Shown piece by piece: positions 6,312 through 62,937 of a stretch of 64,000 nucleotides of DNA. The translations under genes were made by a program, and so were the position numbers. The stretch comes from Mayamaea pseudoterrestris (lineage: Eukaryota; Bacillariophyta; Bacillariophyceae; Sellaphorales; Sellaphoraceae), in contig BROI01000006.1 in the NCBI GenBank assembly GCA_027923505.1, positions 496,001 to 560,000 on the forward strand. The letters are read 5' to 3'. The notes under the pieces were generated by a model. That model did no database searches, was not told the DNA's origin, and saw only the letters and a program-made list of their open reading frames with translations. Within the stretch, counting starts at the first letter, position 1. Every line of letters starts with the position of its first letter.

Positions 6312-7769
<1,458 letters not shown>

Positions 7770-19544: not shown

Positions 19545-22500
19545 TTATCCAGCATCTCCTCCGAGCCCGTGCAAGTCAGTGGTCCATCCGACCGTAGGAA
19601 TGTTGTAAAACTCCCCAATGTGACGAGGCGCAAAGCATCCATCGTCCATGCCGCGGGCAAAGCATTCGGCTAGCTGAATGGCGCACTTAACGTCGGTGAT
19701 CAACGACACACCAAAGTCGACCACGGCGCGACGAAGAATGTAGCCACTCGTCACCTCCTCCTTGCGGCTCGAACCTTCACTCAAGTTGAGCACCAGATCA
19801 ATCATGCCATTCTTAATGACATGGAGCGCCGTGCCTTCCTCATGGTCCATTTCGCTCTCCGGCTTTGAGACAATGGTAATGTCAATGTTCAACGTGTCTT
19901 GGTAAAACTTGGCGGTTCCCGGCGTGCCATACAACTTGTAGCCGAGCTTGCTGAACGTCGCGACGGACGAAATCATCTCCTTGCGGAACTTCTCCTCAAA
20001 GATGGACAAGAGGATAGTGCGGTTCTTGTTTGGGAGCTTGAAGCTGGTTGACAACATGCTCTGCAAAAAGGCTTCATGAGTCGTCTCTCCAAAGCAAGCG
20101 ACCTCACCAGTCGACGCCATCTCCACTCCCAGCGTTGGATCAGCGCCACGAAGGCGGGTGAATGAAAAGATTGGCGCCTTGACACAGACGTAATCAATAT
20201 CGAGCAAGGAAATCTTGTACGGCTCCGCGTCCAGTCCCAACATGGCGCGAGTCGCCAGCGAGATAAAGTTGTGGTTGAGTGTCTTGCTGACAAACGGAAA
20301 GGTTCGGCTCGCTCGAAGGTTGCATTCAATCACCTGCACCTCATTCAGCTTGGCCATGAACTGAATATTGAATGGTCCAGTGATGCGCAAGCTCTTGGCG
20401 ATCGCAGCCGCATATCGCTTCACTTGCCGAATGGTGCTCACATACAGCTTCTGCGCCGGCAGAATGACGGTTGCATCGCCACTATGCACACCCGCATTTT
20501 CCAAGTGCTCGCCAATGGCGTAGTTCAAGATTGTTCCCTTGTTGGCCACCGCATCAAACTCAATTTCCTTTACATTGACCATGAACTTTGTCACGACAAC
20601 CGGCTTGTCGTTACCAACGTCCGTCGCTAGCGTCAAAAACGTGCGGAGCTGTTCCTCGTTTGCAGCGACACGCATGGCCGCTCCCGAGAGAACAAAACTT
20701 GGCCGTACAAGAACCGGAAAGCCAACCTTGTTGGCGAAAACAACGGCTTCGTCAGCCGATGTCAACACCGACCACGGCGGTTGCATAATGCCAAGTCTGT
20801 CAAGCATGTCGGAGAACTGGCGACGATCCTCTGCGCGCTCAATGTCCTGAGCCTGAGTACCTAAAATCTTGGCACCCATTGAAGAAAGTGGATCGGCAAG
20901 ATTGTTGGGAATCTGTCCTCCCACCGAGACAATGACACCCGCAGCACCTTCCCGTTCATAAATGTCCATGACACGCTCCAGACTGAGCTCCTCAAAGTAA
21001 AGTCGGTCGCTCTCGTCAAAATCAGTACTGACGGTCTCAGGGTTGTAGTTAATAATGATACTCTTGAAACCATCTCGGCGCAACTGACGAATGCATGAGA
21101 CTGCGCACCAATCAAATTCGACTGAGCTACCGATACTGTACGCTCCGCAGCCCAGGACGATAACTCCCTGCTCCTTGTACTGAGCCTGTTCCATCTGCGC
21201 CAAAGCGCGGGCTTGGCGACGGTGCTCTTGCGTCTTGCCATCGTCTGAATCAATCGTGTTGGAGCGCGGACGAGTGAATCGAGGCGAGAGCTCACGGGTG
21301 TGCTTTGAGAGCGGAATGTCGTCAGCATTACCCGAGTAGGTGACGTAAAGGTAATTCGTCTGGGCAGGGAACTCAGCTGCAAGAGTATCAATAAGTTTCA
21401 CGACGGGCGTAACGCCAAGAGACTTTCGGACGCTTCGAATTAACGCTTCGCCTTCCAAGCCCGAAGGAAGATTAACATATCGTGCGATCTGATACATAGA
21501 AAAAGAGTTAGATGCAGCGATGGCAAAATTTATCATCTTGCGAAACATCTGATGCTTACCTGTCGATCACTGAAGCCAGCAACCTTCAACTCTCGCATTC
21601 GATCCTTGCCATTGGTAGCAACAAGATCATCCACATTGCCAATGGACTTGACAGCTGCACGCATCTCGGCAATCCTCTTGAGCTTGCAAAGAAACCAGCG
21701 ATCAATCTTCGTCAGTTCATACACCTTGTCGACAGACCAGCCCACCTCGAACGCTTTTTGAACTGCAAACAGCCTCGTATCTGTCGGAGTTTTCAGCTGA
21801 CTTTCCAAATCCATCGTCTCAACTATCATGTTCGAGTCTTCGCCTTCAAGACCGTCGAGTGAAGGGTTAACCATGCGGCAAGCTTTTTGAATCACTTCTT
21901 CGAAGGTTCGACCGATGGCCATCACCTCACCGACACTCAACATGGAAGACCCAAGTGTGTTACTAACCCGGGCAAACTTCTTTAAATCCCAACGTGGCAT
22001 TTTGAGAACACAGTAGTCAAGACTTGGCTCAAAGCAAGCTGTAGTTGTCTTCGTCACCGAGTTGCGAATCGAGACCAGATCCTTGCCAAGCGAAATCTTC
22101 GTAGCAACGTAGGCAAGCGGATACCCCGTGGCTTTGGACGCAAGAGCAGATGATCGAGACAGCCGCGCATTGACTTCGATGATACAGTATCGCTCGCTTT
22201 CCGGATGGAGCGCATATTGAATGTTGCACTCTCCGACGATGCCAAGATGCCGAACCACTTTAATCGCCGTGCGTCGGAGCATAAAGTACTCTCTGTTTGT
22301 CAATGTCTGCGAAGGAGCCACGACAATGGAGTCTCCGGTATGGATACCAAGTGGATCAAAGTTCTCCATGTTACAAACTGTGATGCAGTTATCACTGGAG
22401 TCGCGGACAACCTCATACTCGAGCTCTTTCCATCCGCGCAAATCCTGGTCAATGAGAATTTGCTTTGACGTCGAAAATGCCTTGGCCGCAAGCTCACGAA

Positions 22501-24584
22501 ATTCTTCATCGTTCTCTGCAAAGCCAGAGCCTAAACCACCAAGGGCAAAAGCAGCTCGGATCAAAACCGGGTAACCGATCTTGTTTGCCGCTTCCATTGC
22601 TTCCTCCATCGACGTCGCGCTGTATGATAACGCAATGGTTTCGTCAATCTCCTTCAGCTTCTGACTGAAAATCTCTCTGTCTTCAGTCGCTTCGATGACA
22701 TCAATAGGTGTTCCAAGCACCTCGACACCTTCAGCTTGCAACTCACCCGACTTCCACAAGTGGACACCTACGTTCAAGGCGGTTTGGCCTCCCATGCTGA
22801 CAATAATTCCATCCGGCTTTTCCTTTCGGATGATATCCATGACAGTGTCCGGCTTGATTGGAAGAAAATAGACGCGGTCGGCCGAGCGAATCTGCTTCTC
22901 CTCCTTATCCTGCGAAGTCTGCACCGTAGCAATGTTCGGGTTGATCAAAATGACTTCAATTCCCTCCTCCTTTAACGCCTTGATGCACTGGCTTCCAGAA
23001 TAATCAAACTCTCCGGCTTGCCCGATGCTCAAACCGCCGCTACCAACAAGCAACACCTTCTTGTAAATCTTGACTCCATATCTCAAGCCGTCTTGAAGAA
23101 CAATCGGCTGCGACTCCTTGCGGACATGTCCGACAAAGCGTTCAAACAAAAAGGCAGTATCGCATGGGCCACCACACGCCTCGGGATGAAACTGCACACT
23201 AAAGAACGGCTTGTGCTTGTGAATGATACCTTCGTTCGTCAAGTCATTAGCGTTCAAAAAGAGCGGCTTCCAACCATCCGGAAGCGTGGCCGGGTCAACG
23301 GCGTAACCGTGATTCTGCGGCGTAATGTAGCAGCGACCCGTCCGAAGGTCAATGCACGGCTGATTCATGCCGCGATTTCCGTACTTGAGCTTAAACGTCT
23401 TGGCACCAGCAGCAAGGGCGAGTAGCTGATTTCCCAAGCAAATACCAAAAATGGGCCTGGCTGGCTCCATGTTCAAAGCAAACTTGATTGACTGAATCGT
23501 TTCAGGGCACATGGTTGGATCGCCTGGTCCATTAGAAAGGAAAAGCCCCTCCCATTCCAAGTTTTCTGGATTCGCTTCGAGATCGTAATTGTACGGAACC
23601 AATGCAAGCTCAACCTTGTACGTATGCACCAAGTAGCGAATGATGTTGTACTTCATTCCGCAATCATATCCAATAATCTTGGGCGAGTTTCCCTTGCCGT
23701 AAATGACAACCTTCTTTGTGGAAACTTCAGCGACCAAGTTCCGCTTGTTTGGATCTTCGACAAGGTCCATGGGAACCGTAGAAAGGATCTCTTTGGGATT
23801 CTGTCGAGAGATGAAGCACATTGTGAGCGTACGTTGTAGTCGTCACGCTCACTACCTGCATATCCAGCAGCACTTACAATCTCCATTCGTCCAAGAATAG
23901 ACCCGTGCTCTCGTAGCTTCTTAGTAAGTTCTCTCGTATCAACATTGTGCATGGCAGGAACGTTTCGCTCTTTCAGCCAATCGCCCAAACTCTTCATGGC
24001 GGCCCAATGCGAATGTTGCCACGAGTAGCTCGAAACAACCAAACCAGCAATGTGAATCTCCGAACTCTCAAAAAAGTCGGGAAGTCCATGAACATCCTTG
24101 ATACTTTCGTCCGGAACTCCATAGTTGCCAATCAATGGATACGTCAGTACCAAGATTTGACCACGATAACTTGGATCCGTCAGGGCCTCGGGATAGCCAA
24201 CCATGCCAGTGTTGAAGACGACTTCACCGCTCATGGTTGTGTTTGCGCCAAAGGATTCGCCGAGGATGGGAGGAGAGCCATCGGCAAGGTACAAGACGGC
24301 AGGGTCGCCCTGGAAAGGAAGATGCCAAGAGATATAGAGGTGAGTGACATGGAATACATGAAAGCTTGCGGGTTGTCTATCTCGCGCCTCATTGGCCATT
24401 CAACTCTTCACACGACCATACGCTAACGTACCTGCTTGTCGAGACAGCTGAGGTCGACACCTCCGTTGGATCCGTTCATGGGTCTTTTAGCTTGTCGAGA
24501 GTTTGCAAAAACTCCGAACACACTTGAAAGTGTGAGCTTGGATGATCGCTGGCCGCAAAGGAAGAAACGTGACGAGAGGCCCAT
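19545..24584 (-). CDS. CPS: Glutamine-hydrolysing carbamoyl-phosphate synthetase, fused small and large subunits
   Basis: Four exons, 24584-24432, 24309-23878, 23800-21560 and 21488-19545, all joined in phase 0, encode 1589 residues. Starting at ATG 24779 instead would give 1654. The ATG at 24584 begins [20 protein letters not shown], a good mitochondrial presequence, so it is preferred. Domains in order are the small-subunit fold, glutaminase with Cys near 316 (FGICLGNQ) and His/Glu near 400-402 (FHPEACGG), the first synthetase half from about 442 ([18 protein letters not shown]), the second half ([20 protein letters not shown]), and the allosteric MGS-like domain near the end. The glutaminase triad is intact, so glutamine should be the nitrogen donor (CPS II/III type). 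It is not fused to aspartate transcarbamylase or dihydroorotase. It makes carbamoyl phosphate for arginine/urea-cycle or pyrimidine synthesis. The compartment rests on the presequence only. Confidence 0.95.
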
Positions 24585-27824: not shown

Positions 27825-29312
27825 TCAATGATCGTGCTTACTTGCTATCTTACGATCTATCGTATCATCCTGAGAATACTTGGGAGATTCACGTCTGGTG
27901 CTTGTCGTGTCGTCGGGGAATCGTGGTAGGCCAGGTCGAGTTGCCGCTGTCCGACTGATAGCACCGCGTGCCCTATAAGCACCCATAGGGAAGCCAATGC
28001 TGGTAGTTTCTATCGACTTACACAGATCTGGCTTGAGACAGAAGGGGCTTTCACTGTTACTAGGCTCAATATGATGGTCAACGGCGCTCACGTCACTCTC
28101 TTGGTTGGGTTTGTCACGGTTTGTCCCGGAAGGAGCGTTGGATGATGGCTTTGCATTCTTATCGGACTCTAGTATTTTGCCTTCCTCTTCCTTCTCCACC
28201 GCAGCTCCGTTCAACATCCACCCTCCTCCTCGAAGAGACTGGCTAAGCTTCTTGATGGCTTCTGCATTTCCCACTTCATGATACCAAATACTCGGGCTAT
28301 CATTGTCAGTACTCTCATGCTCCTGCAAAAATCGCCCATTTCGAACGCGAAAGTAGTTGACCAAGTTGGCTGCCAGTAGCTTCTTGTCTCCCTTGGCAGC
28401 AGCCTTGTAAGCTTGCTTGTACTTGGTCACAATGTCTCGATAAAAGACGTTGCCAGGGTGTTTGGGTGCATTCTTGGTGCGTCCCATTAGAATATCGCGG
28501 CTCGTTGGAGCAAGAATGCGAGTCACTGGATCAGGATCAACGAAGTTGTGAAGTGGAAAGCCCGTTGAGCCATCCGCAGGAGCGACAAAGTGTCCATGCT
28601 TTTGCAACAGTGGAGCCACGCCAGCCGGCAAAAGAAGCGGATGTGGATGCTGGTCAAGCTCGTTCAGACGAGCAAAGGGCTGCTTGACTCTTTGTCGCTT
28701 GTTAGGCGAGTAAGACCAGATAAAAGGTGGAGCATGCGGATTGGTCGCCGACACGGCAATGCATTGCTGGCCGACGTATTTCTTTGTTCCTAAAGAAGGC
28801 TTGGGTTTAATGTCGACGTAGGGTTGCCCATAAGGTAGATTCTGATGTGCAGGATTTCGTCTCGGTTGCTGCGGAATTCGAAACCGCTGATTATCAGTAT
28901 TTGTACGAGTAGGAAAAGCTGGGGAAAGCAGCTGTCTTTCAGCAGCGAGTCGTTCTGCAGGACTCGGCGCGGCATTTGCAGTCCCTTTCATCTCCCCGCT
29001 TGATGTCTTTGTCCCACTCTTGAAACCAAGGACAATGTCACGAACGTGATCAGAAGGTTTACTTGTCGCATCAGTCGTCGACGGAGCGGATGTAGCGAGA
29101 TCCGGAAAGAGAGTCGCTTCATTGCCGCTAACATTATGATTAAAGTCATGGTCTTGAGGTTCTGCATCATCAAACTGTCCGGGGACAATGTCATGCTCTG
29201 GCAACGGATCTTCCTTCCTGACGCCAAGAGGCGACGATGCAGCAGATGCTAGCGAGTCGACACCATGAAACGGATCATCGTCTATTCCATTTGACCTTGT
29301 CATTGTCATCAT
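27825..29312 (-). CDS. DUF6824-domain protein, diatom-type
   Basis: This is a 495-residue single-exon protein. Residues about 265-360 contain a domain starting SRDILMGRTKNAPKHPGN, then VFYRDIVTKYKQAYKAA, KKLLAANLVNYFRVRNGRFL and later WYHEVGNAEAIKKLSQSLR. This 'D-L-GR----HPGN--FR--V' domain matches DUF6824, a family strongly expanded in diatoms and other stramenopiles. It has no established biochemical function that I know of. DNA- or protein-binding regulatory roles have been assumed because members often sit in disordered nuclear-looking proteins. Outside the domain the protein is Ser/Pro/Asp-rich, low in complexity, and lacks membrane segments. The ATG at 29312 and those just after it (MMTMTRSNG) are alternative starts. 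A perfect 12-base inverted repeat lies about 150 bases upstream. Confidence 0.82.
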   Translation of the reverse strand: MMTMTRSNGIDDDPFHGVDSLASAASSPLGVRKEDPLPEHDIVPGQFDDAEPQDHDFNHNVSGNEATLFPDLATSAPSTTDATSKPSDHVRDIVLGFKSGTKTSSGEMKGTANAAPSPAERLAAERQLLSPAFPTRTNTDNQRFRIPQQPRRNPAHQNLPYGQPYVDIKPKPSLGTKKYVGQQCIAVSATNPHAPPFIWSYSPNKRQRVKQPFARLNELDQHPHPLLLPAGVAPLLQKHGHFVAPADGSTGFPLHNFVDPDPVTRILAPTSRDILMGRTKNAPKHPGNVFYRDIVTKYKQAYKAAAKGDKKLLAANLVNYFRVRNGRFLQEHESTDNDSPSIWYHEVGNAEAIKKLSQSLRGGGWMLNGAAVEKEEEGKILESDKNAKPSSNAPSGTNRDKPNQESDVSAVDHHIEPSNSESPFCLKPDLCKSIETTSIGFPMGAYRARGAISRTAATRPGLPRFPDDTTSTRRESPKYSQDDTIDRKIASKHDH

Positions 29313-30073
29313 TTTTCTGTCCGCTGCCGCTTCTTCTTGTGCGCGCCCATTGTGACCCTTTGCGAAACTCCGTTTGGAGCTCCCCGACGAACATGCAACG
29401 AACCTGCATCATCACACTGTCGCCATCGATCCTCGCGACGCCATGCGCGCCATGGTGGTTGCGGGAGTCCTCAATGTGAAAGAGGACTCCCGCGAAACAG
29501 ACATTACTGTGAAGCAAAGAGTGCCTTTAAATGACCCAACTGTGACTTGAATTTCCGTCACAGAAGTACCGCAACGACATTTTCCTAGCTATCCGCATTT
29601 TTTAATTTCTATATACGTGAAAGATAGCCTGCGCAAACTTTGTCGTGTACCAATAGCAAAGCAAGTAATTCTTTGGCTTTTGATCCTCTTAACAATGCCT
29701 CGAGCGACTCCTTTTGCCCCAAATTGTTCCTGCCACGCAAAAGAGTCCAATGGAGCTGCCGGAGCCTTGCCAAACATGTTTTGCATAATCATGATTTTAT
29801 CGTCAGCACCTTGATGCTGCAAGTCAAATGCGGCGGTAATGACCCGTGAACGGTGAATGCGAGTGTATGCCTACATCGTGCAAGAATTGGTCATTTCTAA
29901 TCGATTACATTCATATCTCCTACAGCTCAGTCGCTTGTCGCAACATTGAAGTCATCGTCTTAAATCACTGCCAATGCTATTTGTCGTACATAACCGCATG
30001 TAGTACTATAGACGAACTCAAGATATAAGAGCATGCCCGCGAGTTACAGACATGGCTCAAGTTGCGTGACGCG
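29313..30073. other. Intergenic region with hairpin and possible orphan exon
   Basis: These 761 bases lie upstream of the DUF6824 gene and downstream of paralog B. Besides the hairpin at 29461-29493, a minus-strand frame of about 77 codons (29822-29589) is preceded by a splice-acceptor-like TTTGACTTGCAG. It encodes APAAPLDSFAWQEQFGAKG and then a basic C-terminus. I could not find a convincing first exon, so it is not called as a gene. The rest shows nothing recognisable. Confidence 0.35.
29461..29493. repeat. Perfect 12-bp inverted repeat with 9-base loop
   Basis: GCGGGAGTCCTC at 29461-29472 is the exact reverse complement of GAGGACTCCCGC at 29482-29493, with loop AATGTGAAA between. The stem has 9 G-C pairs out of 12. 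It lies 149 bases upstream of the DUF6824 start codon, so it could be a DNA operator, a 5'-UTR hairpin or chance. Confidence 0.85.
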
Positions 30074-34936: not shown

Positions 34937-35405
34937 AATGGTTTAGATATAGGTCGTTGCGCAAGTCGTAGGTCGTAGTCGTAGGGTCAATCGCGTATCG
35001 CGGTTGTGTTATTCGACGCGATTAGTTGTCGTTTCAATAGTGCTGTCTTCGTTTCGCGAAGCGAGAGAGTGAGAGACTTGCAACCGGTTGCCCTGCCATG
35101 TACGTCTGAAAAGAAACGGCTCGGCATCTTGATGCTTTCACGACTGCACCTCCATGGTGACGAGATGAGAGCAAGTAACGATCGCCAAAATCTCGAGACT
35201 TTAATACCAGTACGACGTTTGATTCCGAAGTGAGACTCGCAGTCAACGGGACATCGCGCAGCGAGATCAAAGCATTTGCAGCGAGCAAGCACATGGGAAC
35301 ACGACGAGACTGTAGATTTTCTCTTGTCAAAGTAATCTACACGGAAGAATATCTCTACAGAGTTCCCTGCTTGCACTAGCAGCGTCACATAGTATCATTG
35401 GAACG
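34937..35405. other. Divergent intergenic region with CCGG palindrome
   Basis: These 469 bases lie between two genes transcribed apart. A perfect 12-base palindrome GCAACCGGTTGC lies at 35080-35091. Frames on both strands here look like noise. No RNA gene is seen. Confidence 0.5.
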
Positions 35406-37707
35406 ATGAGCAGTTCCGCATGCAAAACGCGAGCTCGAAAAATTCGCGACGATGAATTCCTTGCCGCTCTTGCTGCTGCTAATGACTCTGACAAGAAGCC
35501 TGCTGCCGCAGCCGCATTTGGTGATAGTCCGCAGCAAAATATCGCGGCTCTGGGATTATCATCGCGTGCAAAGCGGGCTCGCCGAAATCTCGATGGCGAC
35601 AAGAAACTTCTTGCCTTTCTAGCGTCTGGCGACGCTGACAAGAAGCCTTCCGCTGTTTCTGTACTTGACTTGACAAGCAGCGATCTAATGGATGACTCGA
35701 AAATGCCAGCAGCTGCCGCTTGGGCTGTTTCAAACGACGAAAATGACGACGACGAAATTGTCTACCTTGGAACAAGCAATCTAAAGGCGTTTGGAAATGC
35801 GCAACGAGCAACTCGGTCTAGCAGCTTGATGCAGCGCCGCAAGACACGAGCGTCCGCGCCCTTTCAATCATGCGACGCGGACTTGAAGCTTGCTTTGGAA
35901 ATGCAGGACGATGAGCTAGACAGCATGCAGGCAGACGCCGACCGACTCTTCGCAGAGTCATTGCTCAAGGATCTTTATAATGAATCCAAGGAGCAGGAGG
36001 AAAAGGCAATGATGTCAACGGAGCAAGGACGGGCAGTCAAATTTGTGCAAGCTGTTCTTAAGTTGCACGCACGAAGAATTGAAAAAGCTTGATCAGCAAC
36101 CGCCGGTACTTTCTGGCCATGAGAATATCGCGACGGTCGCAATCGATGATTTAGTTTACCTGGCCGAGCGGCTCATTGTCAAGCAAAACGAATTCAAGGC
36201 GACGAATGTTTGCAGCAACATTTGCATCGGTTTCCACTACACAAAGCCGGAAAATATGAAACACATTCGAACCAACGGACTTTTAACTAGAATGGAACGT
36301 TCCGACAAGAAAATCAAAGCGAAGTTTAACGGATCTGCGTACGGAGTCGGTGTTTACACTGCAAGCAACCCGATTGCGTACCGCGGTGCAAAGCAATATG
36401 GTCCCATTTGCCTCATTGTTGCTCGTTTGAAAGGAGAGGTTTCTAAAGATATTTTTTCGCCGACACTTACTTACGAAAATGGACCCCTTGTCGTACTTCG
36501 ATCTTCCCACCAATGCCTGCCTTTGATTCAGTTTACGATTACGCCTGGTAATCTGACTGAGCAGTATCATGTGCGGCTCCAAGCTTTGATCGACTCGATT
36601 TTCAACGGCGGGCAAGCAACGCCAATTCAATCAGCGTTGGCGGCTCACATGGCAGCCAGCGGGGGACCAATGGGAGCGGCTTTCATGGGGGCAGCTACTG
36701 CGAAACCGACCGCTCCCGTGACAGCGGCAGGCGGCGGGCAAGCAGCGCCAATTCAACCAGCGTTGACGGCTCACATGGCGGCCCGTGGAGGATCATGGGG
36801 AGCGGCTTTCATGGGGGCAGCTACTGTGAAATTGACCGCTACCGTGACAGCGGCAGTTTCAGCTGCGTTAGCGACTGCACCGAACATGACCAGTGGCGCG
36901 CAGTTGCCCCAACAAGCGCCCTTGGCGCCTGGGTCGTCCAACGTTGGCTTGAATTTGGTACCTCCAGTGACAAGCGTCGCCTCTGCTGCGGGCAACAAGA
37001 CTATTACTTACGTTGCTCCGTCTGTTTTTGGTCAAGCGGCTCGAAAGAATATTTTGACTGTCCGAGTAAGTCCCGTGCTTCCCTCGGGCAATTGTGTCAT
37101 TTGCCTAAATACCTTGGGTCATTCAAAGCTGGGACGCTTGCGGTTGTGCGGACATGACTTCCATTATGATTGCATCACCACTGGAGTTTTGCACTTGAGC
37201 CGCTGTCCGATGTGCAACATTAAGATTGGCGATGAGCCTCAGGGAATGATGCCCTCGGGAACAATGAGCATTAGCACACGCCCATCGATGACCTGCGGAG
37301 GGTGGACGCCAGGAACGATTGAAATTCATTACAGGATCTCGGGCGGCACACAGATGGCCTACCACGCGTGAGTATTAGGCCTTGCGTGTTGTTGTGTAGT
37401 ATGTTTGCAATTTGTATCTGACGAACTGCATTTACAGCAATCCTGGAATTCCATTCGCTGGTATATCTCGTACAGCATTGAAGGCCGACTTCTTCTCAAG
37501 AGACTTGAGTACGCGTTCTCGCACGGGCTGACCTTTACGGTCGGAACGTCGCTTACTACACGGGCACATAACTGTGTGACTTGGGCCTCGATTCATCACA
37601 AAACGTCTCCTAATGGCGGTGTCCACGGCTTTCCAGATGCAAACTACTTTGTCAACTGCAACCAAGAGCTCGATGCAGCCGGTGTTCCGCCTGCTACATT
37701 GTTGTAA
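35406..37707 (+). CDS. PARP-like, RING and Deltex C-terminal domain E3 ligase (3' part disturbed)
   Basis: The best model joins 35406-36044, 36097-37367 and 37476-37707 (713 residues). The first intron is only 52 bases and could instead be a frame change. The N-terminus is acidic, with a repeated DKKPAA/DKKPSA block. A PARP-like ADP-ribosyltransferase fold follows, with CIGFHYT near residue 256 and AYGVGVYTAS near 299. Next comes a 42-residue tandem repeat, a RING finger (CVICLNTLG ... CGHDFHYDC ... CPMC, about 545-585), and the Deltex C-terminal domain (GTMSISTRP, GTIEIHYRISGGTQ, LEYAFSHGLTFTVGTSL, WASIHHKTSPNGG). Deltex proteins are ubiquitin ligases whose C-terminal domain binds ADP-ribose/NAD. 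The first usable acceptor (37437) continues the Deltex domain correctly for 13 codons and then loses frame. The second (37475) restores frame but skips that part. An assembly error, a damaged allele or altered splicing would each explain this. Confidence 0.78.
36606..36856 (+). repeat. 126-bp in-frame tandem repeat in the Deltex-type gene
   Basis: Two adjacent copies begin at 36606 and 36732 and keep the reading frame (42 codons each). Both encode GGQA-PIQ-AL-AHMAA followed by GAAFMGAAT. They differ at a modest number of bases, implying a fairly recent duplication in the linker between the PARP-like and RING domains. Confidence 0.9.
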
Positions 37708-47454: not shown

Positions 47455-50400
47455 ATGTCAAGCTCGGAGGCGAACGAGCAGGATGCTCGGCGTCAGTCAG
47501 TGGCGCCATCAGAATCCTTGTCGAATGCATCGCTCCTGGCAGCCTCCAGCATGCGCACCGTCACTCCAGCTGTCGGCAGCAACAGTAACAAGCCATTGAC
47601 AGAAGACACAGTTCTTGAAACGCCAGCAATCGTATCACATTTACGGGGAGAGCAAGCAATGCTGCCGAATGCAGACGAAGCTGAAGTAGTCGACGATGAG
47701 CAGCAAGCCAAGCAATCCGCAACGACTGACACTGAATCGCAGCGGACGAATACAGAATTAGAAACAGCCGCCGCCTTTCCATCAATTCTGGAAACGCCAA
47801 CAAACATGTCGAAAAATCCATCTGCCGCTGCATCAAGCTCTGCGAGTATTTCCACGCCGATCGTTTTGGATGGCGTGCTTGGCAACGAAAATTCCTTGCC
47901 TTCCTCATTAATGTCAGCAGAAGCGCAAGCTTTACTTCCAGCTCGATCAATGAATAGAGCAAAGCCGAATCCAAAAGCCTTGAAAGATTCAAACTCCTCT
48001 TTCAAGGGATCTGCTGCATTACAGAGCGTGCTGGATGACGATTTCTGCGTCAACACGCCAGCAGTCACGGCAGCATCATTGCGAATGCAGCAAGATCGCA
48101 TTTCTACTACGAGTACGGACGAAGCAGACACAGAGCCTTTATCTTCAGCAAAGCGATTCTCGTCATTGAAAAGCTTTTCAGACTCTGGCAGTGAAAGTAG
48201 TGCGTCTCGCGATGTCAAGCCATCGTTGGCAGCACTGAATAAATCGTCGTCAGCAGCAGCAGCAGCCAATGACGAAGTGGTTGAAATGAAGCTCTTGGGG
48301 TCAAGTGATTTTACCATTGTCAATGTTCACAACAACGCTGGTGCTGCAAATGTGCGAGGAACGGTCAAGCTGGTGCGCAATCCAAAGAATGTAAGTTACG
48401 ACACGTGTTTTCTTGTTGTTGTCATATCCAAAGGCGATTCGAGTCTGACGCTACGGTATGTTTCTTGTATTTTCATTTACATAGGCTACAGATTCTAATA
48501 CAATTGACGTGCTAAACTCGTCGAAAGCAAAGCTCGGCAATATTGATGCGCACGAAGCAGCGCACCTGGCGCCCTTGCTTGATCAGTATCCTAATCTGCT
48601 CGTGACCGCCACGGTGGCGGGCCCCGACGATGATTGCATTATCATCAAGGTTCGATACTATGCTTCTCATCCGTCCATTGAAAATTCCGTTGCTGCTCTT
48701 CATGAAGTGCTCGGTCCACTCTTTCAGCCAGCGCCCGGTGCTGACAACTCCGACAAGAAACCAGCGCACCCTCGTCCGATTCAACTTGCATCAGCGGCTG
48801 CGCCACCCGACTCTCCCGGATCACTGAGCGTCTCTTCATCTAGCACAGAAGGCGAAACAATTGAAGAGTTGAAAGTGTTTGGTTACAGCATGTTGACGCT
48901 GGTAGGCATGCAGTATCATTCGGGCCATGGCCAAGTTACAGTGGGCGACAAGGTCAAACTTGTTCGCGAGCCGCTTAACATTTATGACGCCAATGCCATC
49001 CGTGTTGATAACATGAGCGGTACACCAATTGGGCATATTGAACGCAAACAGGCACAGATGCTAGCGGTGCTGATGGATCTTCACAAAGCTGTGCATTATA
49101 ATGCGTCGATTGCTGGTAAAGTACGCCACTCAGCGCTGCCGGTCAAGGTTGAGTACGCAGCAACGTCGGAAGCCGGGCCCATTTATAAGGCCGCTTACAA
49201 GAAACAATTGAAACAGTTGTTTCAGATTTTGGAAGGAGAATCGGCTGGCAGCGACTCTCGACCGGATTTCGCATCCAGTGGCGGTCAATCTTCCCACGCG
49301 CCTCCCCCGTCTGCCCCTCGCATTATTGGCTTTAGTTTGTTGACACTTGTCGGTATGCGATACCATTCGGGATGTCTTGCAATCACCACAGGCGATCAGG
49401 TCCAGCTTGTTCGGGAGCCGTATAATAAGCATGATCCGAACGCTGTCCGGGTCGACACAATGGCAGGCGAAACAATTGGACATGTTGAGCGTGAGCAAGC
49501 CAGATTTCTATCTTATGTCATGGATAGCACCACATCGCTCGTATATCTTTCGGCAATCGGCGCGCAGCGATATTCGAAGGTGCCCTTGGTTGTCCGCTTT
49601 GCTTGTGCTCCCGCAGATACAGCGACATGCTTGGCGATTTTGAGATCTTTCTTAACGGGCTTATTCCATACTACTGACGGCACTGCAAGCAATACTTTAG
49701 CGCTTGCAGGAATGAATGGAATAGTTCAAAATGGGCTATCTCGCGCTGTCGAAGCAAGAGTTCAAACGCAAGTGGTGGACTGGGAAGGACAGCGAGAAGA
49801 GATTGATGAGCTCTTCGAGAAGCAATCGGAAAATCTTTTAGAGAACCTTCCACCTTATGAATTGCCTCCCTTGTTATCGCACTTGACCTTTTACGACTAT
49901 CAGAAGCAGGGGGTTTCGTGGTTGATTAATCAAGAGAAACCGTCCATTCCATCGTACTGGTCAGAAACGGTTGAAAGTGGCATGAAAGTCTGGAAGTGCG
50001 CTCTTACGGGCGAAGTCGTGCACAATGAACCCAAGCCCATTCAAAGCGCCATTCTGGCGGATGGTAAGTGAAGTTCGACTCTCGTGCACAAGATTCGACG
50101 CGCTTTCTCACGCCAGTGTGGTATCGTATACTTTAGATATGGGGCTTGGCAAGACGCTTCAAACATTGGCGTTGATTTTGGCTAACCCTCCTAAAGGATA
50201 CGACACGTACCCTCTGCCAAAATCTATTCGCACCACTGATGATGCCCCACGGACGACTCTCATCGTCTCACCGCTGAGTGTCATGGCTGCTTGGCAATCG
50301 CAGATTGATCAGCACATTAACCGCTATGTCGCGGATCGAACACTTACGGTTCGTGTGTATCATGGAAGTAATCGCGGGAAGGTTCTTCAAATGATTGAAA

Positions 50401-52476
50401 GCGGCCAGGTCGACATTGTTCTCGCTTCGTATCAAACGCTAGCCAGCGACCTCTCGATTATGAGGAGTGCGATGAGGAAAGCTGATGCAAGCGACGACGA
50501 TGCCTTATTTGAATTACCTCGCGCAAAGAAAAAACAAAGGGGTGATCGATGGATCTTCGACCTTTGCTTCCATCGACTAGTGCTTGATGAAGCTGTAAGT
50601 TGATGCGATCATTGTACAAATTGCATTTGTTGTTTGTAATATCATTGCTAAAGTTGTTTTCCTCCACATTGCTCAGCATATGATTAAAAATAGCAAGGCA
50701 AAGATGTTCGAGGCCGTTACCTCATTGACTGCCGATCGCAAGCTTTGCTTGACAGGTAAGTTGCTTTAAGCAACCGCTGGGCCAGTGTAAATGTGAGCGG
50801 CACTAACTTGATCCCACCCACACCGTGATACAAATAAGGCACACCAATGACTAATGCAGTGACCGATATTCACTCGCTCCTGGCGTTTCTAGAAGTACAA
50901 CCGCTGGGTTGCGCGGATGTCTTTAAGCGTTTTATTGTGAATCCGATACGGGCTCACAAGGAGATTGGTTTGGATCGGCTTAGGACGGTAATGTCATACA
51001 TTTGCCTCCGGCGAAAGAAGCAGAAAGTTATGCAGACTATCAAACTTGTGCCAAAAACAGGTACGAAAAAGCCGTTGGTTGGTTATAGACTGGATATTTG
51101 TGCTAAAATTATCACCATTCGTTTTGTGTCGCTTGCAGTGGAGATTCGCAGCGTAGAGTTCCCCGCCGGAAGCGAGCACAAACGAACCTACGATGCTCTT
51201 TATGACACTGCTAGAGCTTACTTCATCGATGCTCTCGAGACAAGTGAAGATGGAGTGTTCGGTAAATTTTCGGAGATGCTTGGTAAGACTGTGCATTTAG
51301 AACGAGTTGGATCGACAGTAGATGCCCTTGACTCACCAATTGGCATCTTTGCAGGGCTCATTTTGTATCTTCGTAGATCTTGCAACCATCTCAGCCTAGT
51401 ACCCCACGGCTATCGCACACGCGCCACAGAATCTCGTGCAACCATTATGAAATTATGTAAGAAGGAAGGCAAGACTTTGCTAGAATACCTCCGAGGAGCA
51501 TTTAACAATGTTGAGCAGCTCGTGGAATGTGCCGTCTGCATGAATGAGTTGGAAGAAAAGGATGCTGTCATTCTTCGAAAATGTCGGCACATTTTTTGTG
51601 AACCCTGTTTGAATCAAATCCACAATCAACTCTGTCCGTTGTGTCGCGACTCGTACACTTCGGACGACATGGTCAAGAAGCATACCGCCGAAGCAGCCGT
51701 GAAGCAAGACGTTGTCGACATTAATAAGGAGATTCAACTCCATACTCGTTCTCCAAAGGTACAAGCCATGTTGGACGCCATTGACGAAATGAAGGCGGAC
51801 GAGAAGGCCGTCATTTTTTCGCAGTGGACAACCATGTTGGACATCGTAGCGGGCGAATTTCGAACCCTCGGTATTAAATATACTCGCATTGACGGAACAA
51901 TGAATGCTCAGGCTCGCGTACAGGCAATGAAAGAATTTGAAATGGAGAGCACTGAGAAGAAGGAAGCGCCACGTTTCATCTTGTGCTCTTTGAGTAAGTT
52001 TTTGTGAGGCGGTGGGTTGGATGGCACGTTTACAGTCCATTGATTAACCAACCATTGTCCTGCTCTCCCTACAGTGGCTTGCGGGACAGGAATCAGTTTA
52101 ACAAGAGGAAATGTAGTTTTCATTCTTGACCCTTGGTGGCAAGGAGTGCGTCATTGCGTCGTCTATGCCTCTTGAGTTTGTCATTGTCATTGCTCACTCG
52201 GGCTTGCCATCTCCTTGTACTTTTTAGGCCGCCGAGAACCAGGCAATGGATCGATCGCACCGCGTGGGACAGAAACGAGCCGTACGATGCTACCGATTCC
52301 TCATGGCAGGATCGATTGAGGAGCGTCTCGTGACTTACACGCAAGTGAGCAAGGCCACGCTGGGCAAGGCGTCGACCGAGAAGCTGAGCGCCGCCGAAAA
52401 GCGCAAAGCGCGACTGACAGCCATGTGCGACTTATTTGAGGTTGATCCTTCCAAGTTGGATGTTGTTTGGGACTAA
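47455..52476 (+). CDS. RAD5: RAD5/HLTF-like SNF2 helicase-ubiquitin ligase with three HIRAN domains
   Basis: Eight exons: 47455-48390, 48485-50063, 50137-50594, 50677-50755, 50839-51060, 51139-51993, 52075-52145 and 52228-52476, giving 1482 residues. The first 270 are disordered. A degenerate HIRAN copy (VKLVRNPKN, about 275-335) is followed by two good ones near 438-510 (FGYSMLTLVGMQYHSG, LVREPLNIYDANAIRVDN) and 590-662 (FSLLTLVGMRYHSG, LVREPYNKHDPNAVRVD). The SNF2 motor has DMGLGKT near 839, and a DEAH box split by an intron between Ala and His. A RING finger (CAVCMNELE ... CRHIFCEPC ... CPLC, about 1222-1270) is inserted before the C-terminal lobe (FSQWTTMLDIV, ENQAMDRSHRVGQ). HLTF/Rad5 polyubiquitinate PCNA and remodel stalled forks, with HIRAN gripping 3' DNA ends. 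The call is secure, and three HIRAN copies are unusual. Confidence 0.93.
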
Positions 52477-61396: not shown

Positions 61397-62560
61397 TCAC
61401 CGCAACGACCGCTTCGTCCGTCGCTTCTTGGTAACGTCAATGTACTCCTGTCGACAGGTGGGACAGGTTGGACGACGAAGCAGCCAGTCTGTGATGCAGT
61501 CCACGTGAAAGGCGTGCTTGCACTGCTCATTCTTGGACCATGCGACGACTTGGCCCGCTTCGTACTCGGCCAAGCAAATGTCGCAAATGAAACCATGCTG
61601 CACTGTCGAGCAAGTTTCGGTTTCGTCATTCTCATTACTAATGTCATGTTCAGCATCTCCACTGGCGGCAGTCCGAGCCGCGCCAGCTTGTTGCTGCGGT
61701 GGCGCAACGTTTAAGAATGCTTCAACGCTGCTCGCATCTGGTGCAGCCAATGGAACTGTTGAAACCATTGCCTTTGTGTTCGTCGCATTGCAAGTTTCGG
61801 CATTATTCTCGATATCAGCAGCAGTAGTAGTAGCAGCAGTAGTCGCTTCCAATACCTTTATTTCGTCCATGGAGAGTGGTTTGGAGAACAAGAGGCAATG
61901 ACACTGTTCGTTTCGTTCTTCGTCGTCGCCGTTGTCATGCTGCTGCAGCATGCACCAGTAGACGGGTCCATCAACGAGTTGATTGTTCAAAACGTTGACT
62001 GCTCCTTGTGCATTTGCAGCTGCTGCGTGAACGATTCCTTCACACTGCCGCTTTAACAATCGATCGTACACTTGCTCACGCTTCAGTCCAGTCGAAGGCT
62101 CCCTTTTGCAGCAGCAGTACCAGCATACAAACAGAATCACAAAGCAAGTATACAGCAGCAGATAAGGCCAATACATGAACAGGAGAACTGGAAGCAATAC
62201 GAGAAACGCAATGAACACCAAGCAGTAACCGACAAGGCGCACCAAGCAATTGTTTCGAACAGTATAATGATGTTGAGCTTGTCGTCGATTTACTAATGAT
62301 GGAGCGTCCGAAAGCGATCTGCGGGACAAGGGTTGAGAAGGAGGAGACGCAACTGATTGATTTGTTGCAGTGTTACTACAAGTTCTGGTAGTAGTTTCAG
62401 TAGCAGTAGCAGTGGAATGTAGTGGCAGCTGCGTGGAAGATGATGATGCACCAATCGCCGGCGGACAAATAATGTTTTCGGAAAAAGCCAAGGGAGCTAG
62501 TTTATCAGATGCCGCCGCCGCCTCTGCCGGCAAGCATCCACTCTCAGTGCTGCTACTCAT
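61397..62560 (-). CDS. Membrane-anchored RING-H2 ubiquitin ligase
   Basis: This is a 387-residue single-exon protein. A Ser/Thr-rich cytosolic N-terminus precedes a long hydrophobic region at about residues 105-150 (GYCLVFIAFLVLLPVLLFMY and LLLYTCFVILFVCWYC), likely two membrane helices. A variable linker rich in Ala, Thr and Gln follows. The RING-H2 finger is close to the C-terminus, about 322-372: CDICLAEYEAGQVVAWSKNE, then CKHAFHVDCITDWLLRRPTC, then PTCRQEY. It has the C3H2C3 pattern with the Pro-Thr-Cys pair typical of E2-binding RINGs. A basic tail (KKRRTKRSLR) ends the protein. Proteins of this layout (ATL/RNF13-like) ubiquitinate membrane or secretory-pathway targets. The substrate is unknown. 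It is divergent from the gene at 62938. Confidence 0.88.
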   Translation of the reverse strand: MSSSTESGCLPAEAAAASDKLAPLAFSENIICPPAIGASSSSTQLPLHSTATATETTTRTCSNTATNQSVASPPSQPLSRRSLSDAPSLVNRRQAQHHYTVRNNCLVRLVGYCLVFIAFLVLLPVLLFMYWPYLLLYTCFVILFVCWYCCCKREPSTGLKREQVYDRLLKRQCEGIVHAAAANAQGAVNVLNNQLVDGPVYWCMLQQHDNGDDEERNEQCHCLLFSKPLSMDEIKVLEATTAATTTAADIENNAETCNATNTKAMVSTVPLAAPDASSVEAFLNVAPPQQQAGAARTAASGDAEHDISNENDETETCSTVQHGFICDICLAEYEAGQVVAWSKNEQCKHAFHVDCITDWLLRRPTCPTCRQEYIDVTKKRRTKRSLR

Positions 62561-62937
62561 TGTATTTGTCTTGAGGAGTCAATTCGCAAGTCGATTCTCT
62601 CCATGGAGCGAAACGAATTCTCGTTCGATGAGTTTTTTCATAACCGCTCCGACACCTGAACGAGTACCAGTGCGTCGCAAGACCTAGTCGTAGAAATGGC
62701 GCGCCTTGTTCGCTTTTCCTCAAAACACTCCGCGTTGCCACAGACACGGCCATCAACAAAAGAGCTGATTAAATTGAGATACAAATCTAAACTTTCAAAG
62801 GAGAGAGGCAAAGCATTTTCGACGAACGACTGCAGCAACAAAGAGTGACGTTCACAGAGACAAGTGACTGATCCAGATAGCGACAGATTTTCGGAAGATC
62901 CATCAGCTTTTTGCCCCTATCGTATTCTACGTCAAGC
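62561..62937. other. Divergent intergenic region
   Basis: These 377 bases lie between divergent genes and contain a GGCGCGCC palindrome near 62697. It is a likely shared promoter. No gene or RNA is recognised. Confidence 0.45.

What the first reader, a model, noticed from the sequence alone, without database searches (positions are those of the whole stretch)
35406..37707. One-chain PARP-like + RING + Deltex ubiquitin ligase
The gene strings together a PARP-like ADP-ribosyltransferase fold (CIGFHYT, AYGVGVYTAS), a RING finger and a Deltex C-terminal domain. In animals the comparable pairing is a complex of two proteins, PARP9 and DTX3L, that joins ADP-ribosylation to ubiquitination. A single-polypeptide version in a microalga could be an independent solution, perhaps able to modify ubiquitin or its own substrates with ADP-ribose. 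The linker between the two activities is a recent tandem repeat, so the module spacing is evolving.
Basis: partly seen in the sequence, partly recalled or inferred. Interest (0 to 1): 0.78.

Follow-up and report, generated by a model that had tools for sequence, protein, structure and literature searches.

The report
ADP-ribosyltransferase-like Deltex ubiquitin ligase gene
A probable algal gene joins an ADP-ribosyltransferase-like domain to a Deltex-type ubiquitin ligase in one reading frame, a pairing that could attach ADP-ribose and then ubiquitin with one protein, but the copy in this sequence carries two reading-frame defects.

Summary
[quoted passage not shown] DTX2 in the PDB E 5.7e-26 with a gap-padded query. 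The residues matching DTX2 His582 and Glu608, which activate ADP-ribose for ubiquitylation, are both kept. The PARP-like part is probable but divergent. It fails Pfam's PARP cut-off (12.9 against 26.7 bits); yet its only two Pfam hits are both ADP-ribosyltransferases, its local profile score against four PARPs beats all 400 shuffles, and a search by its motif alone returned phage ADP-ribosyltransferases. By eye it keeps the H and Y of the H-Y-E triad and lacks the Glu. This part, the linker, the RING and the start of DTC lie in one open frame, so the fusion stands. The copy may be a pseudogene, an assembly error, or partly rescued by a longer intron. Two structure predictions failed (pLDDT 33 and 37); eukaryotic genomes were not searchable. 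Verdict: new variant of a known kind; function inferred.

The parts
35406..36066 (+). N-terminal region in frame 0 (ORF1 runs 35316-36089), no Pfam domain; acidic/basic low-complexity start, then a charged helix-like stretch
   Evidence: Coding signal in frame 0; 0 Pfam families at E <= 10.
36013..36092 (+). Overlap of ORF1 and ORF2 in which the frame changes; no GTRAG intron; holds a five-A run at 36082-36086
   Evidence: A run read.
36205..36597 (+). ADP-ribosyltransferase-like domain; His of FHYT at 36235-36237, Tyr of GVGVYT at 36355-36357, strand PLVVL from 36484
   Evidence: below curated cut-offs.
36607..36858 (+). Two in-frame 126-nt tandem copies in an Ala/Gly/Pro-rich linker that runs to about 37089
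   Evidence: 16 differences, dN/dS 0.96.
37093..37215 (+). RING finger, eight Cys/His ligands (C3H2C3 pattern by sequence); Asn after the last Cys
   Evidence: (zf-RING_2 E 3.5e-7), coordinates, alignment to DTX2.
37240..37367 (+). N-terminal part of the Deltex C-terminal domain
   Evidence: DTC positions 1-42, 15.1 bits, below cut-off.
37368..37437 (+). Intron, 70 nt, GTGAGT...TTTACAG; alternative acceptor at 37475 (108 nt)
   Evidence: eight other putative introns in the window are 48-83 nt.
37438..37477 (+). DTC segment NPGIPFAGISRTA in a third frame, followed by a 16-nt gap relative to DTX3L/DTX2
   Evidence: Alignment to DTX3L NPGKRYPGIQRTAYLPDN.
37478..37707 (+). C-terminal part of DTC with stop codon; His matching DTX2 H582 at 37594-37596, Glu matching E608 at 37666-37668
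   Evidence: E 5.8e-21; DTX2 E 4.6e-13; roles from PMC7615817.

Best explanation
The locus descends from a single-chain Deltex-type E3 ligase in which an ADP-ribosyltransferase (ART) domain precedes RING and DTC. In the intact form the ART domain would use NAD+ to put one ADP-ribose on the chain itself or on a bound target. The RING would recruit an E2~ubiquitin, and the DTC His-Glu pair would activate the 3' hydroxyl of that ADP-ribose so that ubiquitin is placed on it: writer and ubiquitylator in one molecule, joined by a flexible linker. Shown here: the domain order in one open frame, the DTC catalytic pair, and an ART-like H and Y. Inferred: the ART fold, any enzyme activity, cis coupling, and that an intact protein is made.
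For: RING and DTC by Pfam and PDB. His and Glu matching DTX2 H582 and E608 are kept; their role is from PMC7615817 and PMC10810221, passages. ART: the only two Pfam hits of the 175-aa segment are PARP (E 0.079) and DarT (E 0.082), while 0 of 9 reversed or shuffled controls hit an ART family. Local hhalign against PARP10/14/15 and TNKS2: 24.9, with 0 of 400 shuffles as high (maximum 20.5). hmmsearch: 12 of 20,000 shuffles as high, and ORF2 ranks first of 474 window ORFs. The motif YGxGxYTxxNP alone returned 51 viral loci, of which 31 have an aromatic(or V)-H-[GS]-[TSGA] motif 15-45 residues upstream, against 174 of 20,000 background positions. Ten of these 51 loci, picked by me, all hit ART-PolyVal. 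ORF2 is open through ART, linker, RING and DTC start.
Against: No curated ART cut-off is reached; the shorter 131-aa cut lost the PARP hit and kept only DarT (E 0.048). Full ORF2: no ART hit. PDB, PHROGs and NCBIfam gave no ART hit. Shuffles also reach E 0.02-0.07 with unrelated families (3 of 9). The global hhalign score was equalled by 1 of 400 shuffles and its C-terminal part is misaligned; the ORF ranking is narrow (5.9 against 5.1 bits). The window does not itself hit ART-PolyVal, only 1 of the 10 phage sequences passes that family's cut-off, and the phage hits are partly related to each other. The window motif is FHYT, not H-G/S-T. The third triad position is not Glu (by eye). Structure prediction failed twice. 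Two frame defects.
Confidence: 0.45

Rival explanations
1. This copy is a decaying pseudogene or relaxed paralogue of an intact gene elsewhere: architecture real, locus not functional. It is compatible with the best explanation at the level of the gene family.
For: Frame change around 36,066 with no GTRAG intron and a DTC gap that is not a multiple of three. The linker repeat evolves with dN/dS about 0.96. Frame changes looked at in neighbouring genes (CPSII, HIRAN-SNF2) coincide with GTAAG donors, so frame loss is not general in this sequence.
Against: Coding signal persists on both sides of each defect and the DTC catalytic residues are kept, so decay would be young. A five-A run in the overlap is a place where assembly errors are common (general knowledge). 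The 108-nt intron restores the frame in DTC.
Confidence: 0.4
2. The ART-like domain is a pseudo-enzyme or ADP-ribose/NAD+ reader, as PARP9 is inactive, and the RING-DTC half ubiquitylates ADP-ribose made by other enzymes.
For: No Glu at the third triad position (by eye); the divergent HYT in place of HGT; PARP9 is described as inactive with Q-Y/S-T/S (PMC2964712, passages).
Against: H and Y are both kept, and mono-ARTs such as PARP10, 14 and 15 work without the Glu (PMC2964712, passages). No macrodomain or other reader domain was found by Pfam.
Confidence: 0.25
3. The ART similarity is spurious; the gene is a plain RING-DTC ligase with an unrelated N-terminal region.
For: No curated ART cut-off met; no ART hit in PDB, PHROGs or NCBIfam; structure prediction uninformative.
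Against: Both Pfam hits are ART families; shuffle tests; H then YGxGxYTxxNP in the right order and spacing as in phage ARTs.
Confidence: 0.1
4. The ART-like part and the RING-DTC part are two neighbouring genes joined by the assembly or by misreading.
For: An Ala/Gly/Pro-rich stretch separates them and coding scores are low over the repeat.
Against: One open frame of 452 codons covers both, with frame 1 the best-scoring frame in all windows from 36021 to 37326.
Confidence: 0.04

Closest known systems
Deltex family E3 ligases (DTX1, DTX2, DTX3L): RING-DTC
   Same: RING followed directly by DTC; His and Glu that activate the ADP-ribose 3' hydroxyl are kept; PDB matches to DTX2, DTX1 and DTX3L. 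RING-H2-type ligand pattern as described for DTX1/2/4 (PMC8424196, passages).
   Different: An ART-like domain precedes the RING; no WWE domain found by Pfam; this copy lacks five DTC codons plus one base.
PARP9-DTX3L complex of animals
   Same: Pairs a PARP-type fold with a RING-DTC ligase.
   Different: Two proteins there, one frame here. PARP9 has macrodomains and an inactive Q-Y/S-T/S site (PMC2964712); here H-Y and no macrodomain hit. No KH-like region was found by Pfam.
PARP10/14/15-type mono-ADP-ribosyltransferases
   Same: Weak local similarity over 58 columns, 28% identity, around the H and Y motifs; no triad Glu.
   Different: HYT instead of HGT; below the Pfam PARP cut-off; no shared accessory domains.
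ART-PolyVal (PF18760) domains of phage polyvalent proteins
   Same: H upstream of YGxGxYT..NP at similar spacing.
   Different: The window itself does not hit PF18760; the rest of the domain does not align well.
Other single-chain PARP plus ubiquitin-system proteins: Dictyostelium U-box-macro-PARP (DDB0232928), fungal and algal PARP6/8 with a UBCc domain
   Same: A PARP domain and a ubiquitin-transfer domain in one chain (PMC2964712, PMC4245714, PMC1266365, passages).
   Different: Their ubiquitin-side domains are a U-box or an E2-like domain, not RING-DTC, so they lack the known ADP-ribose-ubiquitylating site.

Membership tests
Deltex (RING-DTC) E3 ligases | RING finger with complete Zn ligands | tested here: met
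   zf-RING_2 30.8 bits against cut-off 27.3; eight ligands by sequence.
Deltex (RING-DTC) E3 ligases | DTC domain directly after the RING | tested here: met
   DTC C-part 75.5 bits against 25; joined match to DTX2 E 5.7e-26.
Deltex (RING-DTC) E3 ligases | Catalytic His and Glu (DTX2 H582, E608) | tested here: met
   Aligned; numbering offset inferred from the construct 390-622 named in PMC7615817.
Deltex (RING-DTC) E3 ligases | Complete, in-frame DTC | tested here: inconclusive
   70-nt intron: frame lost, 16 nt missing; 108-nt intron: frame kept, conserved segment dropped.
PARP (PF00644) | Reaches the curated family score | tested here: not met
   12.9 bits against 26.7; no hit for the 131-aa cut or the whole ORF.
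PARP (PF00644) | Triad His and Tyr | tested here: met
   FHYT at 36235 and GVGVYT at 36355, aligned to H and Y of PARP10 by hhalign; HYT rather than HGT.
PARP (PF00644) | Third triad residue Glu (polymerase-type) | tested here: not met
   By-eye placement on GPLVVL; no tool alignment places this strand reliably.
ADP-ribosyltransferase fold | ART fold in a structure model | tested here: inconclusive
   pLDDT 32.8 alone and 37.3 with nine phage sequences; no fold search was run.
PARP9 (of PARP9-DTX3L) | Tandem macrodomains | tested here: not met
   No macrodomain in the three ORFs at E <= 10.
Single-chain ADP-ribosyltransferase plus ubiquitin ligase | Both activities in vitro | not testable with these tools
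   Needs biochemistry.

The most novel reading that the evidence does not exclude
The intact form of this gene is a self-contained 'ADP-ribose, then ubiquitin' writer: one polypeptide that lays down mono-ADP-ribose and ubiquitylates that same ADP-ribose, making the hybrid ADP-ribosyl-ubiquitin mark without a partner PARP, in a lineage reported to have few or no PARPs.
Probability: 0.3. Interest if true: 0.75.

Novelty: new variant of a known kind. Interest (0 to 1): 0.5.

Why it matters
ADP-ribose ubiquitylation by Deltex enzymes is recent knowledge, and in animals the ADP-ribosyltransferase that supplies the substrate is a separate protein. A natural fusion would say which two activities belong together and give a one-protein system to test it. 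If the organism is a diatom (not tested), it also bears on reports that sequenced diatoms have no PARPs (PMC2964712; at least two PARPs later reported in Thalassiosira oceanica, PMC4245714; passages) and on the report that Deltex-family genes are up-regulated during sexual reproduction in four diatom species (PMC12618581, one passage). Whether those Deltex genes carry this architecture is unknown to me.

Tried and rejected
Relatives: the search for related loci in viral contigs with the ART part, the DTC part and the RING-DTC start found none. A stricter ART motif pattern found 0 loci in viral contigs and 0 in genome contigs. A DTC pattern gave 40 loci in genome contigs, of which one (L052) reads as a real DTC by eye, and 7 viral loci, none a DTC. 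The own genome is not held. DTC as a family rang in none of the 14 control genomes, which shows nothing.

Structure: AlphaFold2 of the ART segment alone (pLDDT 32.8) and with nine phage sequences (37.3). Both were too poor for a fold search, so none was run.

Intron for the first frame change: 27 frame-keeping GT-AG joins examined, no GTRAG donor. Rejected as the likely explanation, but a non-canonical intron is not excluded. A programmed frameshift was considered and not tested.

Second ART or DTC copy in the window: none. The DTC profile gives one strong hit (E 3.3e-21), the next E 4.6. In the PARP profile ORF2 leads with E 0.44 only.

Ubiquitin-binding motifs in the N-terminal region were considered by eye; Pfam found none, so no claim is made.

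Literature: searches listed no paper on a PARP-RING-DTC fusion. I judged from listings and passages only, and the library is open-access PubMed Central.

Full report
What is there. The gene runs from ATG 35406 to TAA 37705-37707 on the plus strand in three frame pieces: ORF1 35316-36089, ORF2 36013-37368 and ORF3 37372-37704. Pfam finds nothing in ORF1, a RING and the start of DTC in ORF2, and the rest of DTC in ORF3. The RING passes its cut-off. The N-part of DTC (15.1 bits) does not pass on its own and the C-part (75.5 bits) does.

The Deltex half. The C-terminal DTC piece matches DTX2 at E 4.6e-13. Read together with the RING and the NPGIPFAGISRTA segment, with five X over the gap, it matches DTX2 at E 5.7e-26, DTX1 at 1.9e-23 and DTX3L at 3.4e-23. 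With the 108-nt intron instead, DTX2 falls to E 6.5e-18, and an unrelated glycosyl hydrolase also appears at 5.3e-4. [quoted passage not shown] DTX3L has H707 and E733 (PMC10810221, passages). The window has His at 37594 and Glu at 37666 in the same alignment columns. So this half has the known parts for ubiquitylating ADP-ribose.

The ART half. For: the 175-aa segment 36085-36609 has two Pfam hits at E <= 10, PARP (0.079) and DarT (0.082), both ADP-ribosyltransferase families. Of nine controls (one reversed, eight shuffled), three hit something at E 0.022-0.07, none of it an ART. A profile of PARP10, PARP14, PARP15 and TNKS2 scores the 118-aa core at 24.9 by local hhalign, above all 400 shuffles. 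By hmmsearch, 12 of 20,000 shuffles equal or exceed it, and ORF2 is first of 474 window ORFs of 60 aa or more. A pattern for YGxGxYTxxNP, run on viral contigs without further selection, returned 51 loci. In 31 of 51 an aromatic-or-Val, His, Gly/Ser, then Thr/Ser/Gly/Ala motif lies 15-45 residues upstream, against 174 of 20,000 random positions in ORFs over 150 aa of the same loci. Ten of the 51, picked by me, all hit ART-PolyVal, at E 1.9e-8 to 0.017.

Against: none of the scores passes a curated cut-off. The 131-aa cut hits only DarT (0.048) and the full ORF hits no ART family. PDB, PHROGs and NCBIfam show none either. The hmmsearch alignment covers 18 residues and the margin over the next window ORF is small, 5.9 against 5.1 bits. 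Global hhalign is matched by 1 of 400 shuffles. Only one of the ten phage sequences passes the ART-PolyVal cut-off, several phage loci are near copies of each other, and the window does not hit that family. The window has FHYT where most ARTs have H-G/S-T. Structure prediction failed twice. I put the ART assignment at about 0.85. The third triad position, placed by eye on GPLVVL, is not Glu; PARP10, 14 and 15 are mono-transferases without it and PARP9 is inactive (PMC2964712, passages).

One chain. ART, linker, RING and the start of DTC lie in one open frame, which is the best-scoring frame in all windows from 36021 to 37326. The linker holds two 126-nt copies, in frame, with 16 differences and dN/dS about 0.96.

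Two frame defects. First, coding signal moves from frame 0 to frame 1 with no gap. Breakpoint scores are nearly flat: 24.0 at 36066-36067 and 23.35 at 36024-36025, against about 20 at worst. All 27 frame-keeping GT-AG joins lack a GTRAG donor. A five-A run lies in the overlap at 36082-36086. Second, the intron at 37368 has a GTGAGT donor and two usable acceptors. The 70-nt form fits the eight other putative introns in the window that I picked by hand (48-83 nt; only some were checked for frame) and yields the conserved NPGIPFAGISRTA, after which 16 nt are missing. The 108-nt form keeps the frame but loses that segment. In the CPSII and HIRAN-SNF2 genes the frame changes that I looked at coincide with GTAAG donors, so the sequence is not generally full of frame errors. 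Pseudogene, local assembly error and rescue splicing all stay open.

Organism. Not told and not tested. The window is eukaryotic (short GT-AG introns). A DUF6824 protein suggests a diatom to me from recall only.

Comparison with the known. PARP joined to other ubiquitin-system domains is in print: U-box plus macro plus PARP in Dictyostelium, UBCc or RWD with PARP6/8 in fungi, plants and others (PMC2964712, PMC4245714, PMC1266365, passages). I found no paper on ART plus RING-DTC in one chain in searches. This is therefore a new variant of a known kind: a Deltex ligase by tested features, an ART-like domain by probable but uncurated similarity, and not a member of Pfam PARP by score.

Noticed in passing
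L052, around 7298-7320, minus strand (Endozoicomonas cretensis contig OODV01000002.1): A bacterial ORF piece of 264 aa ends in a clear Deltex C-terminal domain, apparently a eukaryote-like gene in a bacterium; the only real DTC by eye among 40 pattern loci.
   Followed up: partly
viral loci L001-L051: Many phage contigs encode a YHGT...YGxGIYTAxNP ADP-ribosyltransferase segment; 10 of 51 tested hit ART-PolyVal.
   Followed up: partly
19548-23842, minus strand: Fused glutamine amidotransferase plus carbamoyl-phosphate synthase (CPSII-like) gene with an apparent 71-nt intron.
   Followed up: no
48485-52004, plus strand: HIRAN-SNF2-RING-helicase gene of HLTF/RAD5 type in several exons.
   Followed up: no
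27828-29408, minus strand: Protein with DUF6824 (E 5e-21), which by recall is common in diatoms; the only hint at the organism that I used.
   Followed up: no
61400-62578, minus strand: A second RING-H2 protein in the window (zf-RING_2 E 1.7e-11), with no DTC.
   Followed up: no
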